Source: Flavobacterium sp. I-STPP5a (GTDB lineage: Bacteria > Bacteroidota > Bacteroidia > Flavobacteriales > Flavobacteriaceae). From it: a DNA stretch of 64,000 bases. Both the position numbers and the translations under genes were made by a program. The stretch covers positions 1 through 64,000 of the forward strand of contig NZ_VHLM01000014.1 in NCBI RefSeq assembly GCF_009764685.1. The letters are read 5' to 3'. The notes beneath the pieces were generated by a model. The model worked only from the letters and a program-made list of their open reading frames with translations, made no database searches and was not told the DNA's origin. Below are positions 10,968-26,853 of the stretch, one piece after another (position 1 is the stretch's first letter; each line of letters begins with the position of its first letter).

Positions 10968-11882
10968 TTATTTTGTTAAACAATTCCTTAAAGCGCCCTC
11001 AAGATTTTTAAATTGAAATTGAAAACCAGTTTGCTCTATTTTTTCAGATGAAACTCTCCTGCCGGTAAGTACTATTTTAGACATTTCGCCCATAACAAGT
11101 TCAAGAACAAACGTGGGTACATTGGGCAACCAAATAGAATATCCGTAAACACAGGCAAGTGTTTTTGAAAAAACAGTATTTGTAGTATTATCCTGGATAG
11201 CTGCATTGTAGGCTCCGTTCATGGCTTCATTTTGCATGGCATGAAAATACATCTCACACAAATCATCTACATGAATCCAAGGCATATACTGTTTTCCTGT
11301 TCCAAGTGCAGATCCTAACCTCAACTTAAAAACCGTGGCAAGCTTGTTCAAGACACCATCGTTTTTTCCTAATACGAGTCCGGTTCTTATTTTTACCGTT
11401 CTTATATTTCTATTTTCAATAAAATCTATCGCATCTTCCCATTTTTGACAGGTATAACCCAAAAAATCATTTGCAGGATTCATGGTTTCTTTGCAAATCT
11501 CCTCTCCATTAATAGCACCGTAAATACCAACTGCAGAGGCCGATATAAATGCGTCAAGCTTTTTATTGTGTTTCTTGATCGTAGTGTATAATAATAAAGT
11601 AGATTGTTCCCTACTTTCAATTATGGCAGCTTTACGTTTTGCAGTCCATCTTTTCTCAGCGATGTTCTCTCCAGCAAGGTGTATGATAAAATCTGCTCGC
11701 AGTACTGCTTGTTCATCAATGGTTTGATTTTCAACGTCCCACTTATAATAAAAAACCTTTTCAAGGTTAGGTCTTAAAGTCCTCGTCAAAATAGAAACTG
11801 TAAACCCTTTAGATAAAAGCAAACTTGTCAATTGTTTTCCTATAAAACCTGTTCCGCCACTTAATAATACGTTCTTTTTCAT
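10968..11882 (-). CDS. TIGR01777-family NAD(P)-binding epimerase-like SDR
   Basis: A 304-residue extended SDR. The nucleotide-binding motif GGTGFIG is at residues 9-15; HLAGENIAEKRWT and SASAVGIYG follow, and the C-terminal region carries a DUF1731-like segment (GEMSKIVLTGRRVSSEKIEQTGFQF). The family is related to YfcH of E. coli and human SDR39U1; substrates are unknown. The gene is divergent from the TetR gene at 12002 across 119 bp holding a perfect inverted repeat. TIGR01777 proteins often sit with photolyase genes, which fits this neighbourhood. Confidence 0.88.
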   Translation of the reverse strand: MKKNVLLSGGTGFIGKQLTSLLLSKGFTVSILTRTLRPNLEKVFYYKWDVENQTIDEQAVLRADFIIHLAGENIAEKRWTAKRKAAIIESREQSTLLLYTTIKKHNKKLDAFISASAVGIYGAINGEEICKETMNPANDFLGYTCQKWEDAIDFIENRNIRTVKIRTGLVLGKNDGVLNKLATVFKLRLGSALGTGKQYMPWIHVDDLCEMYFHAMQNEAMNGAYNAAIQDNTTNTVFSKTLACVYGYSIWLPNVPTFVLELVMGEMSKIVLTGRRVSSEKIEQTGFQFQFKNLEGALRNCLTK

Positions 11883-11932
11883 AATAGTGTAAAGCTAATG
11901 TTTTTTTGAAGATATAAAATTATAATAAATTT

Positions 11933-11962
11933 TGTTTAACTTTATTAATATATAGTTAAACA
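11933..11962. promoter_or_regulatory. Perfect 8-bp inverted repeat, candidate operator
   Basis: TGTTTAAC (11933-11940) and GTTAAACA (11955-11962) are separated by 14 bp of AT, in the divergent intergenic region between the epimerase and the TetR operon. A near-consensus -7 box (TTAATTTG, 11980-11987) lies just downstream, so a bound protein would cover the -33 region. It may be the site of the adjacent TetR protein or of a MerR-type light regulator. Confidence 0.5.
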
Positions 11963-12001
11963 TTCACTACCTTTATACCTTAATTTGAAATACACACTAA
12001 A

Positions 12002-12661
12002 ATGGCTACTAAGAAAACAGCAATTACAAAAGATAAAATAGTTTCATTGTATATGGATTATGTACTAGAACACAGTGAAAAACCTAAGTCCGTATATACT
12101 TTTAGCAAATCAAATGATTTTACCGAGACTGATTTTTATGCCTACTTTGGGACAATTGAAAGTATCGAAAAAGAAATTTTCAAAATGTTTATAGAAAAAA
12201 CAGTCGAACTTCTGCATAAAAACAAAGAATACGAAATGTATGATATGAAAACTAAAATGCTTAGTTTCTATTTTACTTTTTTTGAGATACTTACTGCTAA
12301 TAGGAGTTATGTAATTTTAGTTTTAAAAGAACATAATGACCAACTTAAAAAAGTAATGCAACTCTCTGGATTGAGAAACAGCTTTAAAAATTTCTTAACA
12401 GAAATTATCGCTGATGATTTTAGAACTCAACAAGAGCGTTTGCAGAACTTTCAAGAAAAAGCTTTTCAAGAAACGTCTTGGATACAACTTTTATTAACCT
12501 TAAAGTTCTGGCTTGATGATGCTAGTCCAGCATTTGAAAAAACAGATATCTATATTGAAAAGTCCGTCAAAGTGACTTTTGAGTTAATGAATATTGCTCC
12601 AATAGACAGTTTAATCGATTTTGGAAAATTTATTTTCAAAGAAAAAATATACAACAAGTAA
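12002..12661 (+). CDS. TetR/AcrR-family transcriptional regulator
   Basis: A 219-residue protein with an N-terminal three-helix DNA-binding region (about 8-60: DKIVSLYMDYVLEH, VYTFSKSNDFTETDFYAYFGTIESIEKEIF) typical of divergent TetR proteins. It has an all-alpha C-terminal ligand or dimer domain. Its TAA overlaps the ATG of the ABC1 gene (TAATG), so translation is coupled. As the first gene of the cryptochrome operon, beside an inverted repeat, it is probably an autoregulator; its ligand is unknown. Confidence 0.8.
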   Translation: MATKKTAITKDKIVSLYMDYVLEHSEKPKSVYTFSKSNDFTETDFYAYFGTIESIEKEIFKMFIEKTVELLHKNKEYEMYDMKTKMLSFYFTFFEILTANRSYVILVLKEHNDQLKKVMQLSGLRNSFKNFLTEIIADDFRTQQERLQNFQEKAFQETSWIQLLLTLKFWLDDASPAFEKTDIYIEKSVKVTFELMNIAPIDSLIDFGKFIFKEKIYNK

Positions 12662-13968
12662 TGAAAACAATAGACTATATCCCCACCTCAAAAATTGAGC
12701 GGGCAACAAAACTGGTACAAACAGGAGCAAAAGTTGGTGTAAACTACCTAAAATATTATGGTGGTAAAATGGTCAACTCTGATATGACTCGTGATCAATT
12801 GAATGAAGATAATGCCGAGGATATTTATGATGGACTTAAAAGCCTAAAAGGAAGTGCACTTAAAGTAGCCCAAATGTTAAGCATGGATAAAAGTTTTTTA
12901 CCACAAGCTTATGTTGAAAAATTCTCATTATCTCAGTTTTCAGTTCCGCCATTATCTGCTCCATTGGTTTTAAAGACATTCAAAACTAATTTTGGTAAAA
13001 CACCTTATGAAATATTTGATGAATTTAATGCTAACTCTGTAAATGCAGCTAGCATAGGACAAGTACACGTTGCGGTTAAAGACGGTAAAAAATTAGCGGT
13101 AAAAATTCAGTATCCTGGTGTGGCCAATAGTATATCATCTGATTTGTCTATGGTAAAACCTATAGCTATACGAATGTTTAACCTGCAAGGGAAAGATTCT
13201 GATAAATATTTCAAAGAAGTAGAAGATAAATTGATTGAGGAAACTAATTATTTATTGGAACTAAAACAAAGCCAAGAAGTAGTTGAGGCCTGTCAAAAAA
13301 TTGAAAATTTAGTTTTCCCTAGCTATTATCCTGAGTTTTCATCAGAGAAAATCATAACCATGGATTGGATGACCGGAAAACACTTATCTGAGTTCACAAA
13401 AATAAACTCAGATCAAGTAGCAGCTGACAAAATAGGTCAAGCTTTATGGGATTTTTACATGTACCAAATTCATATTCTGAAAAAAGTACACGCAGATCCA
13501 CATCCAGGAAACTTCTTGGTAGATGAAAACAACAATCTTGTAGCGCTCGATTTTGGATGCATGAAAAAAATTCCTACGGAATTCTACATCCCTTATTTTG
13601 AGCTTATTGATAAAAAAGTAATCAACGACCCTACGATATTTAATGCTAAATTATTTGAACTTGAGATTCTAAGAACCGATGATACCGCTGAGGAAATCGC
13701 TTATTTTACAACCATGTTTCATGATTTGTTATCCTTATTCACTCAGCCATTTCAAGCATCAACATTTGATTTTTCTGATGTAACATTTTTTGACAATATA
13801 GCTGCATTAGGCGAGCGTTTTTCTAAGGATACTAACTTGAGAAAGATGAATGGAAACAGAGGTTCAAAACATTTTATATACATGAATAGAACTTTTTTCG
13901 GGTTGTACAATTTAATGTTTGACTTAAAGGCTACAGTAGTTGTCAATGAGTTTGAAAAATACAAATAG
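12661..13968 (+). CDS. ABC1/AarF/UbiB-family atypical kinase-like protein
   Basis: A 435-residue protein. It carries the ABC1 hallmarks: a KxGQ-like element written KVAQML (Gly replaced by Ala), [11 protein letters not shown] (the Ala-rich loop replacing the P-loop), AVKIQYPG with the catalytic Lys, HADPHPGNF, and ALDFGCMKK as the DFG equivalent. UbiB/COQ8 proteins act as ATPases supporting isoprenoid quinone or lipid metabolism. This one lies between TetR and DUF2256/cryptochrome genes, so its role may be linked to photoprotection rather than quinone synthesis (inferred). It overlaps both neighbours by one base. Confidence 0.9.
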
Positions 13969-14102
13969 TGAAAAAAGAGCATTTACCCTCAAAGATGTGT
14001 CTAGTTTGTAATAGGCCCTTCAACTGGCGGAAAAAATGGGAAAAGGTTTGGGAAGACGTAAAATATTGTAGTGAAAAATGCAGAAGAAACAAAAAGGTTT
14101 AG
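13968..14102 (+). CDS. DUF2256 zinc-ribbon-like micro-protein
   Basis: A 44-residue protein starting at GTG within the TAGTG overlap with the ABC1 gene; its end overlaps the CRY-DASH start by 25 bp. Visible signature: [19 protein letters not shown], then YCSEKCRR, i.e. C-x2-C and C-x3-C pairs that could hold one zinc ion, with basic termini. This is the DUF2256 family, which is regularly found beside or fused to cryptochrome/photolyase genes. Its function is unknown to me. It is too short for ordinary ORF cut-offs but well supported by motif and by double translational coupling. Confidence 0.9.
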
Positions 14103-15382
14103 TTTGGTTTAGAAATGATTTAAGAGTTCAGGATAATGAATCACTTAAGAATGCCATTGATACTAATGAGACAGTTGTTGCTGTATATTTTTTTGACCCA
14201 AGACAGTTTGAAGAAACGCAATTTGGATTTAAAAAAACAGAAAAATTTAGAGCCAAATTTTTAATTGAATCTGTGGTTGCTTTACGCAAAAATCTAGAAA
14301 AACTAGACATTTCATTATTAGTTTACCAACAAAAACCTGAAGATGTAATTCCAGATTTAGTTCAAAAAAAAGAAATTAATTCCCTTTACTTTCAAGAAGA
14401 ATGGACTAGTGAGGAAAAGCAAGTAGAACTAAATATTAGAGAAAAAACAGAGGCTTCAGTAGAATTTAGAACTTCTTACAACCAATTTTTATTTCATCCT
14501 GATAGCATTCCGTTTGATATTGAATCGATACCCAATGTTTTTACACAATTTAGAAATAAATGCGAAAAATCAGCTCGGATAAAATCTTTATTCGTTCCAA
14601 AAGCAAAATCAAAAGAAAACTTGGTGCCAAATGACACTAAGATTCCTACTCTACAAGACTTGGGATTAGAAGATTTTGAATTAGATTCAAGAACTGCTTT
14701 TCCGTTTTATGGCGGTGAAGATGCAGCTTTGTCTAGATTACAAAGCTATTTTTGGGATAGCGAAAAGTTAAGTGTGTACAAACTCACTCGCAATGGATTG
14801 ATAGGCGCCGATTTTAGTTCGAAATTTTCACCTTGGTTGGCCAATGGTTCTATTTCGGCTAAAACCATTTATTGGGAAATTCAACAATATGAAAAAGAGG
14901 TGGAGAAAAATGAGTCTACATACTGGTTAATTTTTGAGTTGATTTGGAGGGATTATTTCAAATACATTTCATTAAAAAACGGGAATTCTATATTTAAACT
15001 TGGTGGGATTTTAAACCGAGATTATGAATGGAAAAATAATAAATATGCAATTACTAAATGGATAAATGGTACTACCGAAGAGTCATTTGTAAATGCAAAT
15101 ATGATTGAACTAAAAGAAACGGGCTGGATGAGTAATAGAGGCCGACAGAATGTTGGGTCTTATTTTGCCAAGGAACTATGTTTGGATTGGCGTATTGGAG
15201 CTGCCTATTTTGAATCGCTACTACTTGATTACGATGTCCACAGCAATTATGGTAACTGGATGTATGTTTCTGGAGTGGGTAACGATCCTAGAGATCGAAA
15301 GTTCAACATCAAGTTACAAGCATCAAATTATGACGGACAATCCAAGTTTCAAAATTTATGGTTGCAAAACAAACTATTCTAA
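14078..15382 (+). CDS. DASH-family cryptochrome
   Basis: A 434-residue protein. The N-terminal alpha/beta antenna domain ([17 protein letters not shown]) is followed by the FAD domain with CRY-DASH-specific runs: [75 protein letters not shown] proteins bind FAD and often MTHF, repair cyclobutane dimers in single-stranded DNA and may signal in blue light. The start overlaps the DUF2256 gene by 25 bp, placing both in one transcript. The C-terminus is short (no tail beyond NLWLQNKLF). Confidence 0.96.
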
Positions 15383-15387
15383 TATAA

Positions 15388-16875
15388 ATGAATACCAATA
15401 AAAAAAATATCAATGTAGTCTGGTTGAAAAGAGACCTTCGTTTGCAAGATAACGAAGCTATTTTCAATGCAACAAAAACGGAAATACCTACTTTGTTGTT
15501 ATATGTATTTGAAAAATCATTAGAAAATGATACGCATTACAGTACAAGACATTGGAATTTTATTAAACAATCTATAGTAGATTTAAACAAGCAATTAGAA
15601 AAATCTAACACAAAAATATTAGCAGTTTCGTCAGAGGTGATTCAAGTATTCAATTTTCTTGAAGAAAATTATAAAATAATAACTGTCTATTCACACCAAG
15701 AAACAGGAATTAAAATAACCTATGAACGAGATAAAACCTTCAAGAGATATTGTAAAAACAACTTTATTCAATGGGAAGAAAATATCAATAATGGTATTTT
15801 TAGAGCTTTAAAGAATCGTTCCAACTGGGTACAAGACTGGGAACAGTACATGAATTCACCTTTATATCATTTTGATTTTGATCCTGACAAATACATATCT
15901 GCAGAGGAAATTAACGAAATAGAAAAAACATTAGAAAAACAAAATCTAGAAACCGTACCAGATACCATTTTTCAAAAAGGAGGTACCACAATGGGGCGTA
16001 AATATCTAGAAACATTTTTTAATGAAAGGTATTTTAATTACGGTTCACATATTTCCAAACCATTATTGGCAAGAAAAAGCTGTAGTAGGTTATCCCCTTA
16101 TATTGCATGGGGAAATTTATCAACACGTGAAGTATTGCAAAAAGCTGCTACTTTTAGATTACAATGTAGTGAACCTAAACAAATAGACTCGTTTGTATCA
16201 CGATTAACATGGCAAGCTCATTTTATTCAAAAGTTTGAAATGGAGGAAATTATGGAGTTTGAGAGTGTAAATAAAGGTTTTCATTCTTTGCAAAAAAAGG
16301 TGAATTTGAACTATATAGAAGCGTGGAAAACGGGTAACACTGGATTCCCACTTATTGATGCATGTATGAGGTGTTTAAATGAAACTGGTTATTTAAATTT
16401 TAGAATGCGCGCCATGTTGGTTTCGTTTTTTACACATAATTTATGGCAACCTTGGCAAGAAGCTACGCATCATTTATCACAAATGTTTTTAGACTTTGAA
16501 CCGGGGATTCATTTTCCGCAATTGCAAATGCAAGCAGGAGAAACAGGTATCAACATGCTACGCATTTACAACCCAATAAAAAACAGTTATGAACACGATC
16601 CCGAGGGAGAGTTTATAAGAAAATGGGTTCCTGAATTGCAAAACATTCCGCGTAGCTTTATCCATGAGCCATATAAAATGACATATCTTGACCAAAAGTT
16701 TAATGATTTTGAAGTTGGTGTTGATTATCCAAAACCAATCGTAAACATGGAGAGAACTAGAAAATTTGCAAGTGATTTTTTATGGAAGATGAAAAAAAAT
16801 CCGCTTGTAAAAGAAGAAAGTTCTCGCATTCTAAAATTGCATACTATGGCCGATATAGGCGAAAGTGAATCCTAG
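15388..16875 (+). CDS. Atypical cryptochrome/photolyase-family flavoprotein
   Basis: A 495-residue protein that starts 5 bp after CRY-DASH. It has a photolyase-type N-terminal domain ([16 protein letters not shown]) and an FAD domain ([45 protein letters not shown]). The region that reads N-x-G-N-W-x-W in classical photolyases is instead [13 protein letters not shown], followed by INMLRIYNP; the usual IWREF is RLTWQAHF. This marks a separate bacterial subfamily whose activity is not established. It could be a photolyase for another lesion or a photoreceptor. The DUF2805 gene directly downstream is its usual partner. Confidence 0.88.
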
Positions 16876-16905
16876 ACTAAAAGATATTAACAAAAATATT
16901 CTATC

Positions 16906-17190
16906 GTGACTGAAAAAAAAGAACTTACTGATTTAGAAAAAGACCGAGTTATAGAAATGGCTTGGGAAGACCGAACTACGTTTGACGCTATTTTATTGCA
17001 ATTTGGACTCAAAGAACAAGAAGTAATTAACTTGATGCGCACCGAAATGAAACCCTCAAGTTTTAAAATGTGGCGTGAAAGAGTGCAAGGAAGAAAAACG
17101 AAGCATGAAAAACTAAGAGATTTTAGAGAAGGACGATTTAAATGCACCATGCAAAGACAAATCAACAACAATAAGATTTCAAAACGATAA
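16906..17190 (+). CDS. DUF2805/TIGR03643-family protein
   Basis: A 94-residue protein with a GTG start, 30 bp after the atypical cryptochrome. Visible signature: VIEMAWEDRTTFDAILLQFGL, EQEVINLMRTEMKPSSFKMWRERVQGRKTKH. The first part looks like a helix-turn-helix and the end is strongly basic, so nucleic-acid binding is plausible but unproven. The family is small, bacterial and often sits beside photolyase-family genes. It is probably the last tightly linked gene before a 49-bp gap to the SDR. Confidence 0.85.
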   Translation: MTEKKELTDLEKDRVIEMAWEDRTTFDAILLQFGLKEQEVINLMRTEMKPSSFKMWRERVQGRKTKHEKLRDFREGRFKCTMQRQINNNKISKR

Positions 17191-17239
17191 TTTACATACA
17201 ACTACAAAAATATATTTTAATAACTGATTGATATTACAC

Positions 17240-17923
17240 ATGAAAAACATAGTAATCATTGGGGGAAGCAAAGGTATTGGTAGTGCTATACTATTACAAC
17301 AATTAGAAAGCAATATCATATACAACATAAGTAGAAACAAACCTGAAATAACCCACCCCAACTTGAGACACTTTTCAATAAATGTTCTACAAGATACTTT
17401 GCCTGATATAGAAAACGTAGATACTTTAATCTATTGTCCTGGTTCTATAAATTTAAAACCAATAGGAAGTTTAAGTATTGACGATTTTAGAAATGATTTT
17501 GAAATAAACGTAATAGGGGCAGTAAAAGCTATTCAAAAATACTTACCCGCTTTACGAAAAGGAACTAATCCGTCGATTGTTTTATTCAGTACGGTTGCTG
17601 TAAAACTAGGAATGCCGTTCCATGCGAGTATTGCAACGGCCAAAGCAGGTATTGAAGGCCTTGTGAAATCATTAGGAGCTGAATTAGCATCTGTGATTAG
17701 AATCAATGCTATTGCGCCTACAATTACCGAAACGACGTTAGCAGCTGGAATATTAAGAAACGATCGTTTGAAAGAAAATATGGTAGAACGCCACCCCATG
17801 AAAGGATATTTAAAACCTGAAGAAGTTGCGAATATGGCTAACTTCCTGATTTCTGAAAATGCAAAATCCATATCAGGCCAGATATTCGAAATGGATTACG
17901 GCATCGTATCTTTTAAAATCTAA
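17240..17923 (+). CDS. Short-chain dehydrogenase-like protein lacking the catalytic tyrosine
   Basis: A 227-residue protein from ATG 17240 (an upstream TTG at 17228 is less likely). The cofactor motif GGSKGIG is at residues 8-14, Asn of a [13 protein letters not shown] NAG variant follows, and Ser117 is in place. The classical YxxxK, however, is IATAK: position 131 is Ile while Lys135 is kept. The end ([11 protein letters not shown]) matches classical SDR C-termini. It may therefore not be a normal oxidoreductase. Comparable SDRs occur in light-induced photolyase clusters of other bacteria. It ends 41 bp before folE. Confidence 0.85.
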
Positions 17924-17963
17924 AAATAATTCACCCAAAATAAAAATTGAAACCCAGAATAGA

Positions 17964-18575
17964 ATGATCAAAGAAATGAAAAGTTACGAAAAAATTGAAC
18001 AGTACGATACCGAAATAACAAACGCATTGGCGGATAATTATAAAGTAATAATCGAAAATTTAGGTGAGGATGTGACTCGCGAAGGTCTAGAAAAAACACC
18101 TGAACGCGTTGCAAAAGCAATGCAATATTTAACACATGGGTACGGCTTAGATCCTTTAGAAATTCTAAAATCTGCTATGTTTACTGAAGATCACCAGCAA
18201 ATGATTGTTGTAAAAGATATTGAAGTATACTCTATGTGTGAGCACCACATGCTTCCGTTTTTTGGAAAAGCGCATGTTGCTTATATTCCAAACGGTAAAA
18301 TTGTAGGTTTGAGTAAAATACCTAGAGTTGTTGATGCGTTTGCTAGAAGAATGCAAGTACAAGAACGATTGACGGACCAAATTAAAAACTGTATTCAAGA
18401 GGCCTTAAATCCGCTAGGAGTTGCCGTAGTGATTGAAGCACAACATATGTGTATGCAAATGCGTGGAATTCAAAAACAAAATTCTGTAACAACTACTTCT
18501 TCTTTTACAGGTGCTTTTGAAAAAGACAAAACTAGAAAAGAGTTTATCAGTTTGGTATCTAATAAACTAAGTTAA
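17964..18575 (+). CDS. folE: GTP cyclohydrolase I FolE
   Basis: About 203 residues from ATG 17964 (ATG 17976 is also possible; the ORF reaching back to 17859 would overlap the SDR by 65 bp and exceed family length). Zinc and active-site motifs are intact: [43 protein letters not shown]. The enzyme makes 7,8-dihydroneopterin triphosphate, the entry to folate and pterins. Its place in the cryptochrome operon suggests a dedicated supply for the MTHF or pterin antenna of photolyases; it may equally be the only genomic folE. A terminator follows. Confidence 0.95.
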
Positions 18576-18683: not shown

Positions 18684-20102
18684 ATGAAAATTCTCTTAAC
18701 TGGTGCCACAGGATACATAGGAAAAAGACTTTTACCCTTATTAGTAGAACAAGGTCATGAAGTAATATGTTGTGTACGAGATAAGAATAGGTTTTATTGC
18801 CCTATTGAATTTCAAAGTAAAATTACAGTAATTGAAGTTGATTTTTTAGACGAACTCTCGGTTCAAAATATTCCTAATGCCATAGATGTAGCGTATTATT
18901 TGATACACTCCATGTCAGGATCTGCAACAAACTATGACGAATTAGAAAGTTTATCAGCAAGAAACTTTGTTTCTAAGTTAAACCAAACTAGCGTGCAGCA
19001 AGTGATTTACTTAAGTGGTATTGTAAACGACCAAGCCTTGTCAAAACACCTTTCTTCCCGAAAAAAAGTAGAAGATATTTTGACCACCGGAACATTTGCT
19101 ACCACTACCCTACGGGCTGGAATTATAGTAGGATCTGGTAGCGCCTCATTTGATATCATCAGGGATTTAGTCAATAAACTACCTGTAATGATCACTCCAA
19201 AATGGCTCAATACAAGATGTCAACCCATAGCTATCACAGATGTGTTGGATATTTTAATGCGATCCTTATTGAATCCAAAAACGTTTGATCAAAGTTTTGA
19301 TATTGGTGGACCAGATATTCTAACGTATAAAGAGATGCTTTTAGGTTTTGCTGCAGCCAAAAATTTAAAAAGATGGATTTTCACAGTACCCGTAATGACT
19401 CCTAAGCTTTCCTCCTATTGGTTATATTTTGTAACTTCTACATCCTACAGATTGGCATCGGCACTGGTGAGTAGTATGAAAGTGGAAGTGGTGTGCAATG
19501 ACAATAGAATTAATGACATCGTGCAAGTAAAACCTATGACGTACCAACAGGCATTAAAACGAGCTTTGATAAAGGTGGACGAAGATAAAGTAGCTTCCAG
19601 CTGGAAAGATTCTATGATTAGCGGGCGTTTCAACACCAATCTTTCTAATTATTTAAAAGTCCCCAAGAAAGACTGCTTTATTGATCGTAGAAAAATGGAA
19701 ATCATTGACCGAGAATTTACCATAAGTAGAATTTGGTCCATAGGAGGCGAAACAGGTTGGTATTATGGAGATTGGCTCTGGGATTTACGAGGTTTTATTG
19801 ATAAACTATATGGTGGTGTAGGTTCCAGACGTGGACGAACCAACAGACATGACATACATGCTGGTGATGCTCTTGATTTTTGGAGGGTTTTGTATGCCAA
19901 TAAAAAAGAGGGAAAACTAATCTTATTTGCCGAAATGAAACTTCCAGGTGAAGCTTGGCTCGAGTTTAAAATAATTGGAAATACCTTATATCAATCGGCA
20001 ACATTTAGACCTGATGGAATATGGGGTAAATTGTATTGGTACAGCGTTGTTCCTTTTCATGGATTTATATTCAAAGGAATGCTTCAAAAATTAATTTACT
20101 AA
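18684..20102 (+). CDS. SDR-family protein with C-terminal DUF2867
   Basis: A 472-residue fusion. The N-terminal NAD(P)-binding extended SDR/NmrA domain (LLTGATGYIGKRLLPLL) spans about residues 1-290. The C-terminal DUF2867 domain (about 330-472) includes IGGETGWYYGDWLWDLRG, GRTNRHDIHAGDALDFWRV and FRPDGIWGKLYWYSVVPFH. The architecture is conserved in bacteria, its substrate is not known, and it recurs beside photolyase and carotenoid genes. It is convergent with the photolyase on the other strand. Confidence 0.88.
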   Translation: MKILLTGATGYIGKRLLPLLVEQGHEVICCVRDKNRFYCPIEFQSKITVIEVDFLDELSVQNIPNAIDVAYYLIHSMSGSATNYDELESLSARNFVSKLNQTSVQQVIYLSGIVNDQALSKHLSSRKKVEDILTTGTFATTTLRAGIIVGSGSASFDIIRDLVNKLPVMITPKWLNTRCQPIAITDVLDILMRSLLNPKTFDQSFDIGGPDILTYKEMLLGFAAAKNLKRWIFTVPVMTPKLSSYWLYFVTSTSYRLASALVSSMKVEVVCNDNRINDIVQVKPMTYQQALKRALIKVDEDKVASSWKDSMISGRFNTNLSNYLKVPKKDCFIDRRKMEIIDREFTISRIWSIGGETGWYYGDWLWDLRGFIDKLYGGVGSRRGRTNRHDIHAGDALDFWRVLYANKKEGKLILFAEMKLPGEAWLEFKIIGNTLYQSATFRPDGIWGKLYWYSVVPFHGFIFKGMLQKLIY

Positions 20103-20165
20103 TTCTGTCAAAAATCAAAAACAATACGCGCTTAAAAACTTCAAACACGTATTGTAAAATGTAAA

Positions 20166-21461
20166 CTATTTTAAAATTCCTGCTTTGTAAGTAGCAATAG
20201 CTCTATCTCTAGCCATAGCGTGCTCTACCATAGATTTTCCGTATCCTAAATCAAATTCTTTAATCCATTTTCTAATGTAAGCTCCTTCCTCATCAAACTT
20301 TTTTTGTTGAATATCTGGATTAAAAACTCTAAAATATGGCGCTGCATCACAACCAGTTCCAGCGGCCCATTGCCAGTTGCCTACATTTGCAGACATGTCG
20401 TAATCTAATAATTTTTGTGCAAAATAGGCTTCGCCCCATTGCCATTCAATTAATAAATGTTTGCATAAAAAACTAGCCACAACCATACGAACTCTATTGT
20501 GCATGTAGCCGGTCTCATTAAGCTGACGCATCCCTGCATCAACCATAGGATAACCTGTTTTTCCTTCGCACCAACGCTTAAAATCGGCTTCGTCATTGCG
20601 CCATTCAATACCGTCATACGCTGACTTGAAATTACGATTGACAACTTTTGGGAAACTGTAAAGAATTTGCATAAAGAATTCTCTCCAAATCAATTCACTT
20701 AAAAAAACATCATTTTTATGAAAAGCCCAATTGACTAATTTGCGCACACTAACAGTCCCAAAACGCAAATGAGGAGACAAATAAGAGGTTTTATCCATAG
20801 CCGGAAAATCTCTTGTATCCTGATAATTTGATATAAACTTGAGATTATGCGGCTTAACAGTGATAGCGCTTTTTTCAAAACCAATTTCGGCCAAAGAAGG
20901 CATTGCATAGGTATTCTTATGAAAATTAGAATACAATGATTCCGTATCATACTCCACAACGGGCGCCATCGTTTTGTATTTTTCTAACCATTTATTTTTA
21001 AACGGTGTATATACGGTATAAGGCAACCCATCAGCTTTTGTGATTTCTTTTTCTTCGAAAATTACTTGGTCTTTAAAAGCTTGTGCTTTTACGTTACTTT
21101 GTTCAAGCAACTCACAAATGGCGGCATCACGCTCTAGTGCATACGGCTCATAATCTTTGTTATAAAAAACATTTTGAATATCGTATTCTTCTAATAGCGA
21201 TTTCCAAACGACATGAGTTTGTCCTTTTTTTACAAGAAGTGAACTCCCTATTTGCGCTAATGCATCCTGAATGGTACTTAATGATTGATGTATAAAGTTG
21301 ACCCTTGCATCATTAACTGGCAGTTTATCCAGAATAGCTTCATCAAAAATAAACAAAGGAATTACAACATCGCTTGACTGTAAGGCCTGAAATAAGCCTG
21401 CGTTATCGTCTAGTCTTAAATCCCGTCTAAACCAAAAGAGAGATACTTGTTGCTTGCTCAT
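20166..21461 (-). CDS. phrB: Class I CPD photolyase-type deoxyribodipyrimidine photolyase
   Basis: A 431-residue protein. The antenna domain (LFWFRRDLRLDDNAGL) is followed by the FAD domain: TSYLSPHLRFGTVSVR, ELIWREFFMQILY, GYPMVDAGMRQLNETGYMHNR, NVGNWQWAAGTGCDAAPYFRVFNP. These are the canonical class I motifs, including the FAD-binding Arg/Asp/Asn region and NWQW. It repairs cyclobutane pyrimidine dimers using blue light. It is translationally coupled to the upstream SRPBCC gene (TAATG overlap). Confidence 0.96.
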   Translation of the reverse strand: MSKQQVSLFWFRRDLRLDDNAGLFQALQSSDVVIPLFIFDEAILDKLPVNDARVNFIHQSLSTIQDALAQIGSSLLVKKGQTHVVWKSLLEEYDIQNVFYNKDYEPYALERDAAICELLEQSNVKAQAFKDQVIFEEKEITKADGLPYTVYTPFKNKWLEKYKTMAPVVEYDTESLYSNFHKNTYAMPSLAEIGFEKSAITVKPHNLKFISNYQDTRDFPAMDKTSYLSPHLRFGTVSVRKLVNWAFHKNDVFLSELIWREFFMQILYSFPKVVNRNFKSAYDGIEWRNDEADFKRWCEGKTGYPMVDAGMRQLNETGYMHNRVRMVVASFLCKHLLIEWQWGEAYFAQKLLDYDMSANVGNWQWAAGTGCDAAPYFRVFNPDIQQKKFDEEGAYIRKWIKEFDLGYGKSMVEHAMARDRAIATYKAGILK

Positions 21462-21922
21462 TATTTTGAATTAAAAATTTCATCAACCTTTGTTACACGG
21501 TATTCAAAAATTGATTTTAATTTATTTTTCACTACTAATGCGTTCATGATGCGACCTAAAATGCCTAATGGCAAGCCATAATGCACCACATCAGTCATTT
21601 TTGTTCCTGTTGGGGTTTCCTCAAAAAAATGTTTGTGGTGCCAAAAGCTGTAAGGTCCAAAACGCTGCTCGTCTATGAAATAGCTATTTTCTTTAACTTG
21701 AGTTATGAGGGTCATCCAAGATAATGTAATACCAAAAAGTGGTGTTACTCTATATTGTATAACTTGTCCGGCATACATTGATTTTTGATCAAAATCAGTG
21801 ATTTGAAAACCCATTCCTTCGGGTGTAATTTTTTGAAGGTTTTTTGGGTTCGAAAAAAAAGTCCAACATTCAGCAACAGATGCATTGACATGCTGAACGG
21901 TTTCTTGTTTGTATATTTTCAT
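21461..21922 (-). CDS. SRPBCC-family ligand-binding protein
   Basis: A 153-residue protein of the START/Bet v 1-like fold: HVNASVAECWTFFSNPKNLQKITP at the N-terminus, central strands FGITLSWMTLITQV and RFGPYSFWHHKHFFEETP, and the amphipathic C-terminal helix. Such proteins bind hydrophobic ligands. Members beside photolyase genes are sometimes annotated as cell-division-inhibitor-like; no enzymatic role can be read. The TAA overlaps the photolyase ATG, so the pair is one operon. A structured repeat lies upstream, between it and crtZ. Confidence 0.85.
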   Translation of the reverse strand: MKIYKQETVQHVNASVAECWTFFSNPKNLQKITPEGMGFQITDFDQKSMYAGQVIQYRVTPLFGITLSWMTLITQVKENSYFIDEQRFGPYSFWHHKHFFEETPTGTKMTDVVHYGLPLGILGRIMNALVVKNKLKSIFEYRVTKVDEIFNSK

Positions 21923-21956
21923 AATGGCTTTGTAAAAGAAATTGGTTTTTTTGTGC

Positions 21957-22074
21957 GCGTGAGGGATAGTAGTGGAGCTCTTTTTTTGGGTTGACTTTTT
22001 TTGTCAAGCCAAAAAAAAGCGGGAACGGATATCCCGACCCCGCTGTAACGCTAGTGGAAGCGAGGTCACGCCCC
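21957..22074. repeat. Structured GC-rich intergenic repeat, copy 1
   Basis: This block is GC-rich against the AT-rich background. Outer arms GCGTGA (21957) and TCACGC (22066) are inverted. Inside are a long hairpin (21980-21995 with 22003-22019, GGGTTGAC/GTCAAGCC flanked by T7/A8) and a second one (AGCGGG 22018 / CCCGCT 22039). Conserved arms GATAGTAGTGGA (21965) and TGTAACGCTAGTGGAAG (22044) recur in copy 2 at 42.1 kb. The small ORF across it is not considered coding. Confidence 0.75.
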
Positions 22075-22085
22075 AACGATTTTTA

Positions 22086-22526
22086 TTAGATTTTGTAGTA
22101 TTTGAAGGGTACAAAAAGCATCCCGAAACACTCTCCGTGTTCTTTACCTAAATGCTTGTGGTGTACTTTGTGTGCTTTGCGCAAACCTATTAAATACTTA
22201 TTGTTTGTGTGTTTGAACCACTTAAAACGCTGATGAATAAGGACATCATGTATTAAAAAATAACACAAACCATAAAACATAATCCCTAGACCTATGAAAA
22301 ATCTATAATTCAATCCGCCTTCAACTCCGTAATAAAAAAGAGCAATGCTTGGCGCTGCAAAAATCACAAAAAAGATGTCGTTTCTCTCAAAGATGTTTGC
22401 GTATTTTGGCTGATGATGATCTGCATGAAAATACCACATGGAACCGTGCATTACATACTTATGGGTACACCAAGTAATCCCCTCCATGGTTAAAAAAGTA
22501 CCAAGAAAAATCAAAAAAAATATCAT
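22086..22526 (-). CDS. crtZ: Beta-carotene hydroxylase CrtZ
   Basis: A 146-residue membrane protein of the fatty-acid hydroxylase/sterol desaturase family. All histidine clusters for the di-iron centre are visible: HKYVMHG, HADHHQPK, HDVLIHQR and HKVHHKHLG, with four hydrophobic segments. CrtZ adds 3-hydroxyls to beta-carotene to make zeaxanthin. It is third in the order crtI-crtB-crtZ, 45 bp after crtB. No crtY lycopene cyclase is in the window, so cyclisation must be encoded elsewhere. Confidence 0.94.
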   Translation of the reverse strand: MIFFLIFLGTFLTMEGITWCTHKYVMHGSMWYFHADHHQPKYANIFERNDIFFVIFAAPSIALFYYGVEGGLNYRFFIGLGIMFYGLCYFLIHDVLIHQRFKWFKHTNNKYLIGLRKAHKVHHKHLGKEHGECFGMLFVPFKYYKI

Positions 22527-22571
22527 TTTATTATGTATTTAAGTGTAACAATTTTTTATTAATGCTGAAAA

Positions 22572-23411
22572 TTATACTAGTTTTAATTTATAAGACACAA
22601 AAGATTTGGCTAGTAAACCTGCTTTGGTGTAGTTAGAAACCCTAATACGAGCGCTACCAATTTCGTGATACGGCGTATTTTCAAGTTTTTTTAATAATTT
22701 TTTGTAGTAAACAAATGCGGTGTAAACACCAAACTTAGCTTCGATTGGCAATTTCACAATCCCTTCGTAAGCCACTCTGAAATCTTCTTCAATTTCAGTA
22801 ATGATGGCTGTTTTTGCCTTTTCGTCAAATGAATTTAGGTCTACTCCTGGAAAATAATTTCGGTTCAATACCAAATTATCATCTTTTAAGTCCCGTAAGA
22901 AATTCACTTTTTGGAAAGCCGATCCTAATCGCATGGCTTCATCCTTGAGTTGATCATAACGCTCGTTATCTCCGGCTACAAACACTTTGAGGCACATGAG
23001 GCCTACTACATCTGCTGATCCGTATATGTAAGCATCATATTCTTCTTTACTATCATAATCAGATTTGATTAAGTCCAATTTCATGCTACGTAAAAAGGCC
23101 TGAATTAAATCGTCAGTAATATTATATTGCTTTACGGTTTGTTGAAATGAATTCAAGATGGGATTCAGACTTATACCCCGATCAAAGGCTTTATAGTATT
23201 CGTCTTCAAACTCTGTGATTAAACTTTCCTTGTCAAAACCATGAAAGGTATCTACAATTTCATCTGCAAAACGCACAAAACCATAAATGCTATAAATGGC
23301 GTCCCTAATGCTTGGTGACAACATGTACACCGCTAGTGAGAACGAGGTGCTATAATTTTTGGTAACTAACTTGCTACATTTGAAAGATACATCGTCAAAT
23401 AATTGCTTCAT
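22572..23411 (-). CDS. crtB: Phytoene synthase CrtB
   Basis: A 279-residue squalene/phytoene synthase-family protein. The aspartate-rich motifs are present: FVRFADEIVDTFHG (DEIVD) and the second motif QKVNFLRDLKDD, with YIYGSADVVGLMCLKVF between. It condenses two geranylgeranyl diphosphates to phytoene. The ATG lies one base after the crtI stop, so it is co-translated with crtI. Confidence 0.96.
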   Translation of the reverse strand: MKQLFDDVSFKCSKLVTKNYSTSFSLAVYMLSPSIRDAIYSIYGFVRFADEIVDTFHGFDKESLITEFEDEYYKAFDRGISLNPILNSFQQTVKQYNITDDLIQAFLRSMKLDLIKSDYDSKEEYDAYIYGSADVVGLMCLKVFVAGDNERYDQLKDEAMRLGSAFQKVNFLRDLKDDNLVLNRNYFPGVDLNSFDEKAKTAIITEIEEDFRVAYEGIVKLPIEAKFGVYTAFVYYKKLLKKLENTPYHEIGSARIRVSNYTKAGLLAKSFVSYKLKLV

Positions 23412-23412
23412 A

Positions 23413-24888
23413 CTATTGATCTGAAAATTGCTTATTAATTAATTCCGACACTAATTTTCCAGAAATTAATGCGGGCGGAACACCTGGTCCAGGAACGGTC
23501 AACTGGCCTGTAAAATATAAATTTTTAACCTTTTTACTTTTTAACTTTGGTCTCAAAAACGCTGTTTGCAAGAGTGTATTTGCCATTCCATAGGCATTAC
23601 CTTTATATGAATTATACTCTGAAACAAAATCATTTTTACAAAAAGACTCTTTAAAAATAATACTTTCTCTAACATTTTGCTGTGTTAAAGTTTCAAAACG
23701 CTTGATAATTATTTCAAAATATTCCTCTCTTAAAGCTTCAGTATCATTTATCCCTGGTGCTAAAGGTACAAGAAAAAATCCAGATTCCATACCTTCAGGC
23801 GCAGCAGTCTGATCTGTTACCGATGGGAAATTTGCATAAAACAAAGGCTCTTTAGGCCATTGAGGTTCATCATAAATATCCTTGGCATGCTGATAAAAAT
23901 CAACATCAAAAAATAAAGCATGATGCGATATGTTATCTAATTTTTTGTTAAAGCCTACATAAAATAATAATGATGATGGGGCAAAAACTCTACTGTCCCA
24001 ATATTTTTCTGAATACCCTCGGTATTTTTGATCTAATAATGTCTCTGTGTGGTGGTAATCAGCACCACTCAAAATTAAATCAGATGCTATGCGCTCTCCG
24101 TTTATTTGAAGTGCAACTGCGGTTCCGTTTTCAACTATTATTTTGTCAACTCCCGCATTGGTTACAAATTGTACTCCTTGTTCTTTTGCAAGATTTACCA
24201 TGGCTCTCACCACATCAAACATTCCAGTTTTTGGGTGCCAAGTTCCCAATCCGAAATCAGCAAAATTCATAAAACTGTAAAAAGAAGGCGTATCTGATGG
24301 TTTTGCACCGAGGAATAAAACAGGAAACTCTAAAATCTGGATTAGCCTTTCGTTTTTAAATTTCTTGCGTACATCTCTACTTATGTTACTAAAAAATTCA
24401 CCTACTTTTAATGCCGTTTCGGTAGTGATTAACTCTAGAGCAGAAACTCCTGGACGATATACTAAATCTTTAATAGCGATATCATAGTTGCTTTTGGCGC
24501 GAGCCATAAATTTCTGCAACTGTTCTCCGCTTCCCTTTTCGATGGAATCAAAAGTGGCAACAATTTCATCTAAATTATCAGCAATAGTAATGAAATCATT
24601 GATTCCGTAGTATACCCTATATGCTGGTGCTAGTTTTATTAACTCATAATAATCAGTAGTTTTTTTGCCAAAATCAGCAAAAAATCGCTCAAATACATCA
24701 GGCATCCAGTACCAACTTGGCCCCATGTCAAATGTAAAACCGTCTATTTTAAGTTGTCTGGCTCTACCCCCTAATGAATCATTTTTTTCATAAACGGTAA
24801 CATTATGACCACTTTGTGCTAAATAGGAAGATGCAGCCAAAGCCGAGAAACCTGATCCTATTATTGTTATTTTTTTTATATCTTTCAT
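23413..24888 (-). CDS. crtI: Phytoene desaturase CrtI
   Basis: A 491-residue FAD-dependent desaturase. The N-terminal dinucleotide fold reads GSGFSALAASSYLAQSGHNV then VYEKNDSLGGRARQ; the C-terminal FAD motif reads TGQLTVPGPGVPPALISGKL. It converts phytoene to lycopene by successive desaturations. It is the first carotenoid gene after the MerR-B12 regulator (36-bp gap), with a possible own promoter in that gap. Confidence 0.96.
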   Translation of the reverse strand: MKDIKKITIIGSGFSALAASSYLAQSGHNVTVYEKNDSLGGRARQLKIDGFTFDMGPSWYWMPDVFERFFADFGKKTTDYYELIKLAPAYRVYYGINDFITIADNLDEIVATFDSIEKGSGEQLQKFMARAKSNYDIAIKDLVYRPGVSALELITTETALKVGEFFSNISRDVRKKFKNERLIQILEFPVLFLGAKPSDTPSFYSFMNFADFGLGTWHPKTGMFDVVRAMVNLAKEQGVQFVTNAGVDKIIVENGTAVALQINGERIASDLILSGADYHHTETLLDQKYRGYSEKYWDSRVFAPSSLLFYVGFNKKLDNISHHALFFDVDFYQHAKDIYDEPQWPKEPLFYANFPSVTDQTAAPEGMESGFFLVPLAPGINDTEALREEYFEIIIKRFETLTQQNVRESIIFKESFCKNDFVSEYNSYKGNAYGMANTLLQTAFLRPKLKSKKVKNLYFTGQLTVPGPGVPPALISGKLVSELINKQFSDQ

Positions 24889-24896
24889 TTGTCTAG

Positions 24897-24904
24897 CAAA
24901 TATA
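24897..24904 (-). promoter_or_regulatory. Possible -7 box of a crtI promoter
   Basis: On the minus strand TATATTTG ends 8 bp before the crtI ATG, matching TAnnTTTG, and would give a nearly leaderless mRNA. Just upstream is TTTTGTTCAA, similar to the sequence overlapping the regulator-gene promoter. No good -33 at the right distance was found, so crtI may simply be read through from the regulator gene. Confidence 0.35.
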
Positions 24905-24924
24905 ATAATTGTTTGAACAAAATA

Positions 24925-25821
24925 TTAAATCCAATCAACTAATTCTGAAATAGAATTAAAAATTGTTATTTGTTCTGGAAGTTCGTCCTTTTTTATAAAC
25001 TCAACCATTCTACCAATATACCATAATTCTGTGGAGTCATCTAACAATTCTTCTGACATTTTCTGGATATAATTATCCAGAATATCTCGTTCCGGCTGCA
25101 CCGTCATGTAAGACACGTATACTATCGAGTTAAAGTGTTTTTTCAAATCTTTAAGGTTTTCAATAGGCATACTTTCGCCAAGATAAATCGTCTTGTACCC
25201 GTGCAATAGTACTTCATAGTTTAAATACATCAAACCTAGCTCATGAATCTCGTTCATAGGCAAAGACAAAACAAAAACTTTATCGTTCTTGGTTTGCTTC
25301 AAAACTTGAAGTTTCTCTGTATTAATTAGCAATTTTTGTTTAATTAAATAACTAATAAAATGCTCGTGAGCAGGTGTAATGGTATCTGATTGCCATAAAA
25401 GTCCTAATTCATTCATCAATGGAATAAAAACCTGATGGAAAATCTCCTTGAACGATTTTTCAGCAATTAACCAATTATATGTATTAAAAAACAACTCTTG
25501 ATCAAAGTTCATCATGGCCATCTTAAACTCGCTGATGGCGTGGCTTTTCGCAGTTTTGCTAGAAATTATTTCACGTACAAGCGACGGGATTTTTTCCTGA
25601 GGATAGGTTGCAATTTTTGATATCTTGTACCCATAATCATGGAGCAAGGTTATATTTAAAAGTTTTTGTAAACTAGCCAAATCATACAAACGAATGTTAG
25701 TATCTGTACGCATGGGCTGAAGAATATCGTAACGTTTCTCCCAAATTCGTATCGTGTGAGCTTTTATCCCCGAAAGGTTTTCAAGATCTTTGATACTGAA
25801 TACATTTTTTACATTGTTCAT
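24925..25821 (-). CDS. CarH/LitR-type MerR regulator with B12-binding photoreceptor domain
   Basis: A 298-residue protein. The MerR winged helix (residues about 8-75: FSIKDLENLSGIKAHTIRIW) is followed by a cobalamin cap helical bundle and a Rossmann B12 domain. The light-sensing CarH signature W-x9-EH is exact: Trp143, then Glu153-His154 (HEH segment). EIHELG (Glu191, His193, Gly196) matches the E/D-x-H-x-x-G cobalamin motif, with His193 as likely lower axial ligand. CarH proteins repress carotenoid genes in the dark as AdoCbl tetramers and fall off DNA in light. Its position directly upstream of crtI-crtB-crtZ supports that role here. Confidence 0.9.
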   Translation of the reverse strand: MNNVKNVFSIKDLENLSGIKAHTIRIWEKRYDILQPMRTDTNIRLYDLASLQKLLNITLLHDYGYKISKIATYPQEKIPSLVREIISSKTAKSHAISEFKMAMMNFDQELFFNTYNWLIAEKSFKEIFHQVFIPLMNELGLLWQSDTITPAHEHFISYLIKQKLLINTEKLQVLKQTKNDKVFVLSLPMNEIHELGLMYLNYEVLLHGYKTIYLGESMPIENLKDLKKHFNSIVYVSYMTVQPERDILDNYIQKMSEELLDDSTELWYIGRMVEFIKKDELPEQITIFNSISELVDWI

Positions 25822-25826
25822 CGTTT

Positions 25827-25850
25827 TTCAATATTTATTGAACAAATGTA
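25827..25850 (-). promoter_or_regulatory. -7 box with adjacent palindrome in front of the MerR-B12 gene
   Basis: The minus strand carries TACATTTG (25850-25843), a TAnnTTTG -7 box, immediately followed by TTCAATA-AA-TATTGAA (25842-25827), a perfect 7-bp inverted repeat covering the expected transcription start. This is a good position for autorepression. The -33 element is not clear. Confidence 0.55.
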
Positions 25851-25908
25851 AAATAAATTTTATTATAAACGGCACTAAATAGATCAAAACAAGCAAAAAC
25901 AGTCGTAT

Positions 25909-26853
25909 TTACTTTAAACTTACGTGCTTTACTGCATTCAAAAGGTCTAAATGAAGAATTGTCTTAGAATTATCTTCATTTCTAGTATACATAGGTTCAA
26001 ATTTAGCCCCATATATTACCTCATCAAAAGTGTACGAGGTTCGAATTGCAACAGTGTTACTAAACATATCATCAAATGCGGTAACCATTACAATAAGTTC
26101 TCCATTAATTTCTTGAAAATCTTCTTTTACATATTGAAATAAGGGGCTGCTCTCCGTGATTGGATGCACAATGGTCCAACTTAAAGTTAGTACATTTATT
26201 TTCTCTAATTCTAAGTCAAGCGCAAAGAATTTATTAGTAAGAACACCATTTTCATGAATACTTATACCAAGTGTCATCTTAGCCTGCGCATCAGTAAGGT
26301 TTGTATTTTTAAAAGGCGTTACCCTAATCATCAAAGCTGTGCCATCGCGATAAGGTGCAATAAGAGCATTGTGCGAAAATTTCAAAAAAGCAGTTGGTTT
26401 ACTAAAACGTCCAAAAAACAAACCTGTAGCAATAGCAAAACTTAGCAAACCAATTAATGCCTCGGCTGCAGCTAATAAACTACTCAAAAAACCCACAGGA
26501 CTAATATGACCATACCCTACAGTGGTAAAGGTTTGAGCACTAAAAAAATAAGCTTGACCAAATTTTCCCCAATCAGATCCTGCAACATCAATACCGTTTA
26601 AGTGTTCGATACCAATTGCATAATATAAAAGTGCAAAAACAAGATTTATTCCAATATAGAATAACAAAAGTATGGAAAGAAACCGCCAACGTGGCATATC
26701 AATCATGGTGTGGTACCAGCTGATTCGGCTCCAGAAAAACATTCCGCTTTTTACCACATTTGCAGTTCCATCTTTATTAATAAAACGACCTCCGTAATTA
26801 TTAGCATTCGTACCAAAACCAGTATTTTGTTGTGCTTCACCCTTTAATTTCAT
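25909..26853 (-). CDS. Inward-rectifier (KirBac-type) potassium channel
   Basis: About 314 residues from ATG 26853 (an upstream TTG at 26877 is less likely). The slide-helix region precedes TM1 (about FLSILLLFYIGINLVFALLY), a pore with selectivity filter TVGYGHISP, TM2 (ALIGLLSFAIATGLFFGRFS) and a cytoplasmic immunoglobulin-like Kir domain. It conducts K+ across the inner membrane. It lies 88 bp upstream of the light-regulator gene on the same strand, with a weak -7 box (TATTTTTG, 26928-26921). Whether it belongs to the light unit is unknown. Confidence 0.92.
   Translation of the reverse strand: MKLKGEAQQNTGFGTNANNYGGRFINKDGTANVVKSGMFFWSRISWYHTMIDMPRWRFLSILLLFYIGINLVFALLYYAIGIEHLNGIDVAGSDWGKFGQAYFFSAQTFTTVGYGHISPVGFLSSLLAAAEALIGLLSFAIATGLFFGRFSKPTAFLKFSHNALIAPYRDGTALMIRVTPFKNTNLTDAQAKMTLGISIHENGVLTNKFFALDLELEKINVLTLSWTIVHPITESSPLFQYVKEDFQEINGELIVMVTAFDDMFSNTVAIRTSYTFDEVIYGAKFEPMYTRNEDNSKTILHLDLLNAVKHVSLK

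What the first reader, a model, noticed from the sequence alone, without database searches (positions are those of the whole stretch)
10968..26853. A light-response island: B12 photoreceptor, carotenoid genes and three photolyase/cryptochrome proteins with companions
Within 16 kb lie a CarH-type regulator, crtI-crtB-crtZ, a class I photolyase with SRPBCC protein, CRY-DASH, an atypical cryptochrome, DUF2256, DUF2805, FolE, an SDR without catalytic Tyr, an SDR-DUF2867 protein, a TIGR01777 epimerase, a TetR regulator and an ABC1 protein. CarH/LitR systems are known to control carotenoid and photolyase genes in Myxococcus, Thermus, Vibrio and Pseudomonas. The extent of this set, with several functionally unknown families, suggests an extended photoprotection regulon in Flavobacteria. 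Co-regulation is inferred.
Basis: partly seen in the sequence, partly recalled or inferred. Interest (0 to 1): 0.78.

Follow-up and report, generated by a model that had tools for sequence, protein, structure and literature searches.

The report
B12 light-switch regulon including proteorhodopsin
A 15-kb stretch of a Flavobacterium genome holds the gene for a likely vitamin-B12 light sensor next to pigment and DNA-repair genes, and the same DNA sign recurs in front of these gene sets and of the distant light-driven pump (proteorhodopsin) gene, so one sensor is predicted to switch on the whole sunlight response.

Summary
The inventory is confirmed: CarH-type MerR regulator, crt genes, photolyase, CRY-DASH, atypical cryptochrome, DUF2256, DUF2805, FolE, Tyr-less SDR, SDR-DUF2867, TIGR01777, TetR and ABC1 lie at 10968-25821. 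The order recurs in most of 59 named Flavobacterium loci. New here is an inverted repeat, TTTGTTTAAC-N14-GTTAAACAAA, whose half-site fits the TnnACA bound by characterised CarH proteins. Across these loci it stands at the lead promoters (carH, crtI, tetR/TIGR01777) and hardly ever at inner genes. In the window only the tetR/TIGR01777 copy is perfect; the crtI and carH copies are degenerate (12 of 16). In the own genome the repeat leads to the divergent proteorhodopsin/blh pair, a flavin reductase-DPRP photolyase pair, FAS1, DUF2452 and (weaker) glutathione peroxidase. In nearly complete genomes of the genus, sites average 3.05 with CarH (reversed-pattern background 0.27) and 0.50 without (background 0.21). 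That CarH binds, and that B12 and light are the cue, is inferred. The atypical cryptochrome lacks photolyase catalytic residues in 135 of 135 relatives examined. Verdict: new variant of the CarH/LitR light regulon.

The parts
24925..25821 (-). CarH-type regulator: MerR DNA-binding domain plus B12-binding_2 domain, Wx9EH (from residue 143) and EIHELG (from residue 191)
   Evidence: Pfam hits PF13411 and PF02607; aligned to Thermus CarH 5c8d/3whp, E about 3e-14; motif positions
25815..25844 (-). predicted carH operator, degenerate (12 of 16 arm bases); overlaps the start codon
   Evidence: position conserved in relatives, 53 of 81 at 13 or more of 16
24890..24919 (-). predicted crtI operator, degenerate (12 of 16 arm bases)
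   Evidence: position conserved in relatives, 55 of 75 at 13 or more of 16
11931..11964 (.). predicted operator between TIGR01777 and tetR; arms 11933-11962 perfect
   Evidence: only match without mismatch in the window; 13 of 15 tetR and 14 of 15 TIGR01777 starts in named loci
23413..24888 (-). CrtI phytoene desaturase-like
   Evidence: PF01593; family name from reader and context
22572..23411 (-). CrtB phytoene synthase
   Evidence: PF00494
22086..22526 (-). CrtZ-like hydroxylase
   Evidence: no Pfam hit at 1e-3; name from reader and recall; next to crtB in 59 of 59 named loci
21461..21922 (-). SRPBCC-like protein
   Evidence: no Pfam hit at 1e-3; name from reader; beside the photolyase in the island, and at the head of unlinked photolyase/Cry2 sets in relatives
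20166..21461 (-). class I photolyase with canonical catalytic residues
   Evidence: PF00875, PF03441; residues
18684..20102 (+). SDR-DUF2867 protein
   Evidence: PF13460, PF11066
17964..18575 (+). FolE GTP cyclohydrolase I
   Evidence: TIGR00063 over cut-off
17240..17923 (+). SDR without catalytic Tyr
   Evidence: PF13561; I/V/T in 74 of 74
16906..17190 (+). DUF2805 / TIGR03643 protein
   Evidence: PF10985, TIGR03643
15388..16875 (+). cryptochrome-like protein without photolyase catalytic residues (R272, F338, A342, H375, L379, M381)
   Evidence: PF00875, PF03441; residues
14078..15382 (+). CRY-DASH
   Evidence: TIGR02765 over cut-off
13968..14102 (+). DUF2256-like zinc ribbon, GTG start
   Evidence: sequence pattern
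12661..13968 (+). ABC1 / UbiB-like atypical kinase
   Evidence: PF03109
12002..12661 (+). TetR-type regulator (TetR_C_23)
   Evidence: PF17931
10968..11882 (-). TIGR01777 epimerase
   Evidence: TIGR01777 over cut-off

Best explanation
The CarH-type protein at 24925-25821 is predicted to sit in the dark, likely loaded with adenosyl-B12, on the inverted repeat TTTGTTTAAC-N14-GTTAAACAAA, and light would release it, so that the promoters bearing the repeat would come on together. Shown: across related loci the repeat stands at the lead promoters of the island (carH; crtI-crtB-crtZ-SRPBCC-phr; tetR-ABC1-DUF2256-DASH-Cry2-DUF2805-SDR-FolE-SDR2867; TIGR01777), and elsewhere in the own genome at proteorhodopsin/blh, flavin reductase-DPRP, FAS1 and DUF2452; the number of such sites in a genome follows the presence of CarH. 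Inferred: the operons, that CarH is the binder, that the chromophore is adenosylcobalamin, that the effect is repression, and that light is the cue.
For: Operator at lead genes: 55 of 75 crtI, 53 of 81 carH, 13 of 15 tetR, 14 of 15 TIGR01777 starts reach 13 of 16 arm bases, against 13 of 1180 random windows; inner and neighbour genes 0 to 3 each (DASH not scored). Spacing N14 in 131 of 137 and -7 box at fixed offset at crtI (53 of 55), carH (48 of 53), tetR (13 of 14). Own genome: 7 sites with up to 3 mismatches, reversed pattern 2; five with up to 2 mismatches stand at DUF2452, proteorhodopsin/blh, flavin reductase-DPRP, tetR/TIGR01777, FAS1. Relatives: of 74 annotated sites, 12 CrtI, 13 FAS1, 9 TetR (8 with TIGR01777), 8 flavin reductase, 5 SRPBCC, 4 DUF2452, 4 proteorhodopsin/Blh, 3 DUF2805, 3 MsrA, 2 CarH, 2 CHRD, 2 FolE, 1 each Cry2, SDR, ECF sigma, periplasmic binding protein, DUF4397, and 2 without a sensible neighbour. 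CarH+ genomes (at least 90% complete) 562 sites in 184 (control 50); CarH- 14 in 28 (control 6). Half-site fits TnnACA (passages). Wx9EH and ExHxxG kept. Adenosyltransferase present, two copies.
Against: The window's own crtI and carH copies reach only 12 of 16, and about a quarter to a third of relatives' crtI and carH starts miss the threshold. Arms are inverted, not the tandem 11-bp direct repeats of characterised CarH. No Pfam hit to the C-terminal B12-binding domain PF02310. Eleven of 34 CarH- genomes still have sites (G170 six, G003 and G219 three, G066 and G123 two), some from fragmented assemblies; 12 CarH+ genomes have none. Proteorhodopsin lacks the repeat in 4 of 14 Flavobacterium loci and 4 of 5 outside the genus, G049 with a CarH-type gene among them. 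Kinship was not corrected for. No expression or binding data.
Confidence: 0.68

Rival explanations
1. The repeat is a real operator bound by the CarH-type protein, but that protein does not sense light through B12; it works without B12, like Myxococcus CarA or Pseudomonas class II LitR, with another sensor or a redox cue upstream.
For: Many predicted targets are oxidative-stress genes (glutathione peroxidase, MsrA). B12-independent members of the family exist (passages). No PF02310 hit.
Against: Wx9EH and ExHxxG are kept; adenosyltransferase present in the own genome and 56 of 60 relatives, though that also serves other enzymes.
Confidence: 0.17
2. The TetR protein (12002-12661) or another shared regulator, not CarH, binds the repeat; CarH would then act on other sequences at crt.
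For: tetR has the best-kept copy in the window, and a TetR homologue (34%) has a perfect copy in G016. TetR distribution across the genus was not searched.
Against: At tetR of G022 and G053, which have TetR but no CarH-type hit, no repeat was found (but these TetRs are only 39-41% identical). Repeats stand at carH and crtI in loci without TetR nearby. Site number follows CarH. TnnACA half-site.
Confidence: 0.1
3. The cluster is a convenience of related functions and the repeat a chance feature of AT-rich promoters; no common control.
For: AT-rich genomes; the reversed pattern has 69 hits in 249 genomes.
Against: 651 sites against 69; lead genes only, fixed register; the same unlinked families recur in different species.
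Confidence: 0.05

Closest known systems
CarH of Thermus thermophilus, Bacillus megaterium and Myxococcus xanthus
   Same: MerR domain plus B12-binding region with Wx9EH; beside crt genes; TnnACA half-site (passages of PMC9304148 and PMC8156234)
   Different: Operator arms inverted about 30 bp across instead of tandem 11-bp direct repeats; predicted targets include proteorhodopsin, photolyases, FAS1; B12 and light untested here
Class II LitR regulon of Pseudomonas putida and P. mendocina
   Same: Light-inducible set with photolyase, FolE, CryB and a photolyase-linked regulator; two half-sites per operator (passages of PMC9758184)
   Different: Class II LitR is reported to keep only the 4-helix bundle and to use a LOV partner; site TGTACA-N12-TGTACA; no proteorhodopsin in the passages read
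Light-induced carotenoids of Chryseobacterium lacus
   Same: Flavobacteriaceae in that paper; crtI, crtB, crtZ up in light by RNA-seq (passages of PMC7064467)
   Different: Authors report no car or lit genes and leave the regulator open; I did not examine that genome
CRY-DASH and class I CPD photolyase
   Same: DASH and the class I photolyase of the island
   Different: The third protein, Cry2, has the fold but none of six catalytic or FAD-near residues checked

Membership tests
CarH-type regulator | MerR DNA-binding domain | tested here: met
   PF13411, 50.0 bits over cut-off
CarH-type regulator | 4-helix B12-binding domain with Wx9EH | tested here: met
   PF02607 over cut-off; motif in sequence; aligned to Thermus CarH
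CarH-type regulator | C-terminal cobalamin-binding Rossmann domain with the lower-ligand His | tested here: inconclusive
   No PF02310 hit, but EIHELG aligns with the Thermus CarH His motif
CarH-type regulator | Adenosyl-B12 binding and light-driven release of DNA | not testable with these tools
   Needs protein
CarH-type regulator | Operator with TnnACA half-sites (common to characterised CarH; the paper calls operator design plastic, so the layout is not family-defining) | tested here: inconclusive
   Half-site fits; layout inverted, not direct repeats
Pseudomonas class II LitR regulon | Regulator reported to keep only the 4-helix bundle | tested here: not met
   The window protein keeps the His motif behind it; so it works like, but is not filed as, class II LitR
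CRY-DASH (14078-15382) | TIGR02765 above cut-off | tested here: met
   502.9 against 317.05 bits
Photolyase/cryptochrome superfamily (15388-16875) | PF00875 and PF03441 above cut-off | tested here: met
   61.3 and 212.8 bits; fold hits with a model of mean pLDDT 71.7
CPD photolyase (15388-16875) | Catalytic Glu, Asn, Met, FAD-facing Asn and proximal Trp (roles recalled) | tested here: not met
   R272, F338, A342, H375, L/I379 in 135 of 135 (the 120 database sequences are the best 120 of 7998 hits)

The most novel reading that the evidence does not exclude
In Flavobacterium one B12 photoreceptor, CarH, is the master switch of a sunlight programme that joins energy capture (proteorhodopsin and retinal synthesis) with pigment, photolyases/cryptochromes and oxidative repair through a single inverted operator; proteorhodopsin use would then depend on vitamin B12 supply.
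Probability: 0.55. Interest if true: 0.85.

Novelty: new variant of a known kind. Interest (0 to 1): 0.74.

Why it matters
How flavobacteria tie proteorhodopsin expression to light is, as far as I recall, unsettled; the operator gives a named, testable answer and a list of predicted targets. Families of unknown function (DUF2805, DUF2452, DUF2256, the stripped Cry2, the Tyr-less SDR) get a predicted context. It would link light use to vitamin B12, which these bacteria probably import (recalled). Chryseobacterium lacus, where light induction of crt is measured and the regulator left open (passages), is a natural test case.

Tried and rejected
Kir channel, dienelactone hydrolase and thioesterase as members: rejected, no operator (0 of 28, 0 of 30, 0 of 6). 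A single operon for everything: rejected, the repeat marks three lead promoters. The AlphaFold2 model of Cry2 (mean pLDDT 71.7) gave no class beyond the superfamily. For DUF2805 the homologue search showed only its own family among the best 120, and no structure was predicted. PHROGs gave only a family of unknown function for Cry2. Paper searches: DUF2256 gave 2 papers, judged irrelevant from title and abstract start; one search listed 15 of 989 papers, none of the listed holding TIGR03643 or DUF2805. Searches on CarH or LitR with proteorhodopsin or Flavobacteria listed no paper that by title or abstract joins CarH to proteorhodopsin control; of the 7 papers I read passages of 2. Subscription journals are not held, and two light-transcriptome papers that I recalled were not held, so published light data could not be checked.
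Full report
What is there. The region 10968-25821 of this Flavobacterium contig encodes two convergent gene sets. Set A runs leftwards: CarH-type regulator, CrtI, CrtB, CrtZ-like, SRPBCC-like protein, class I photolyase. Set B runs rightwards: TetR, ABC1, a DUF2256-like zinc ribbon, CRY-DASH, an atypical cryptochrome (Cry2), DUF2805, a Tyr-less SDR, FolE, SDR-DUF2867. TIGR01777 is divergent from tetR. The nearest named relative of the CarH protein is that of Flavobacterium tiangeerense (99%).

The cluster is conserved. Gene maps of 60 loci from relatives and of 59 named loci of 20 kb or more around carH (best of 303 relatives, so leaning to close kin) keep the order: carH-crtI-crtB-crtZ in 59 of 59, SRPBCC and photolyase in 50, and the opposing SDR2867, FolE, SDR, DUF2805 in 42, 41, 45 and 47. 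CRY-DASH, Cry2 and DUF2256 are optional (18, 27 and 4 of 59). In other genomes the sets lie apart; in G012, on one contig, carH-crt is near 863 kb, SRPBCC-SDR-Phr-Cry2 near 254 kb and DUF2805 near 219 kb, and each of the three has the repeat described below. In G022 and G053 a TetR-ABC1-DASH-DUF2805-SDR set stands without a CarH-type hit in the genome, and no repeat with 13 of 16 arm bases was found in those loci.

A shared operator. Upstream regions from many species show an inverted repeat, TTTGTTTAAC-N14-GTTAAACAAA, at tetR/TIGR01777, crtI and carH. In the 80 named loci, 13 or more of 16 arm bases match at 55 of 75 crtI, 53 of 81 carH, 13 of 15 tetR and 14 of 15 TIGR01777 starts, against 13 of 1180 random windows of the same loci. 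Inner genes have PhrI 3 of 62, FolE 2 of 44 and 0 for CrtB, CrtZ, SRPBCC, SDR2867, SDR, DUF2805, Cry2, DUF2256 and ABC1; the neighbours Kir, dienelactone hydrolase and thioesterase have 0 (DASH was not scored). Spacing is N14 in 131 of 137, and the -7 box TAnnTTT[G/A] (Bacteroidetes consensus, recalled) keeps a fixed offset: inside the repeat at crtI (53 of 55), overlapping the left arm at carH (48 of 53), just past the right arm at tetR (13 of 14); TIGR01777 shows none. Such places fit repression (inference). In the window the tetR/TIGR01777 copy is perfect in its arms and the only such match, while the crtI (24890-24919) and carH (25815-25844) copies reach 12 of 16 and keep TnnACA in both arms. 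At carH the right arm overlaps the start codon, so its conservation there is partly coding.

The operator points to distant genes. A search of the own genome by the pattern alone, up to 3 mismatches, gave 7 sites, the reversed pattern 2. Five with up to 2 mismatches stand in front of a DUF2452 protein; the divergent pair proteorhodopsin (PF01036) and beta-carotene dioxygenase (PF15461); a flavin reductase followed by a DPRP (PF04244); tetR/TIGR01777; and a fasciclin-domain protein. The two with 3 mismatches precede a glutathione peroxidase and nothing obvious. In 60 relatives and the own genome the 37 Flavobacterium genomes hold 95 sites with up to 2 mismatches, the reversed pattern 10. The call listed only part of them; I annotated 74 rows, five of the own genome and one of G049 from another family. 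Of 74, 72 have an identified gene downstream; 35 belong to island families (12 CrtI, 9 TetR, 5 SRPBCC, 3 DUF2805, 2 CarH, 2 FolE, 1 Cry2, 1 SDR), 13 are FAS1, 8 flavin reductase, 4 DUF2452, 4 proteorhodopsin/Blh, 3 MsrA, 2 CHRD and one each ECF sigma, periplasmic binding protein and DUF4397; two have no sensible neighbour, one of them in CarH-less G022. The reference names for proteorhodopsin, flavin reductase, FAS1 and DUF2452 came from the own genome's sites, so what counts is that they recur in other species. Proteorhodopsin was also searched by itself: 10 of 14 Flavobacterium loci with a whole gene carry the repeat upstream (13 or more of 16), 9 of these with a second copy of 12 or more of 16 about 44 bp away; outside the genus 1 of 5 does. 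G001, G002, G026 and one of two G014 copies lack it, as does G049, which has a CarH-type gene.

Who binds. Of 249 genomes of the genus, 215 have a CarH match (E 1.2e-58 or better) and 34 do not (no match, or E no better than 3.3e-5). Sites with up to 2 mismatches: 651, reversed pattern 69. Among genomes at least 90% complete, 184 with CarH hold 562 sites (175 genomes with one or more; control 50) and 28 without hold 14 (8 genomes; control 6), six of the 14 in G170 (contamination 5%) (Mann-Whitney p 5e-13, kinship not corrected). Against this, 11 of all 34 CarH- genomes have a site; in G003 (3 sites) the contig breaks inside crtI next to where carH would lie. Twelve CarH+ genomes have none. The protein keeps the MerR domain, Wx9EH and an ExHxxG aligned to Thermus CarH. 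The half-site fits the TnnACA of reported CarH operators, whose known layouts are tandem direct repeats and are called plastic (PMC9304148 and PMC8156234, passages). A cobalamin adenosyltransferase is present, twice in the own genome and in 56 of 60 relatives, so adenosylcobalamin could be made.

The atypical cryptochrome. It belongs to the photolyase/cryptochrome fold (model of moderate confidence), but where the window's photolyase has E, N, M, N, W and W it has R272, F338, A342, H375, L379 and M381; 120 database homologues (the best 120 of 7998) and 15 relatives from loci, down to about 47% identity, agree, with I for L379 in 7. It is not filed as a photolyase; its role is open.

Known or new. 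Light regulons with photolyase, FolE and CryB under LitR-type repressors are known in Pseudomonas (PMC9758184, passages), and CarH control of carotenoids is established. I saw no paper joining CarH to proteorhodopsin control in my searches, which cover open papers only and were judged mostly from listings. I rate the finding a new variant of a known kind, with a cheap and decisive test.

Noticed in passing
G000:C41:28618-28842 and G000:C55:7058-7282: Two further, weaker DUF2805 copies in the own genome, outside the island; most Flavobacterium relatives also have such a second copy.
   Followed up: no
L095 4925-5431; likely also before crtI in L072 and L074: In other families of the order an ECF sigma factor gene (named by eye) lies between carH and crtI, with the repeat in front of it in L095.
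   Followed up: partly
L180 1570-2712 (G006): A periplasmic binding protein (PF01497) carries the repeat; if it serves B12 uptake, the sensor would control its own chromophore supply. Speculation.
   Followed up: partly
Fasciclin-domain genes, e.g. L101 861-1445: FAS1 genes are the most frequent neighbours of the repeat (13 of 74), without a known light role that I can name.
   Followed up: partly
L099 2-700 (start of G000:C14): A transposase-like frame lies just upstream of the flavin reductase-DPRP pair and its repeat.
   Followed up: no
window 25909-26877: A Kir-type potassium channel gene neighbours carH in 31 of 59 named loci but has no repeat (0 of 28).
   Followed up: yes
proteorhodopsin/blh spacer, e.g. 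L117 and L114: Two repeats about 44 bp apart stand between the divergent genes in most Flavobacterium loci that have one, perhaps one per promoter.
   Followed up: partly
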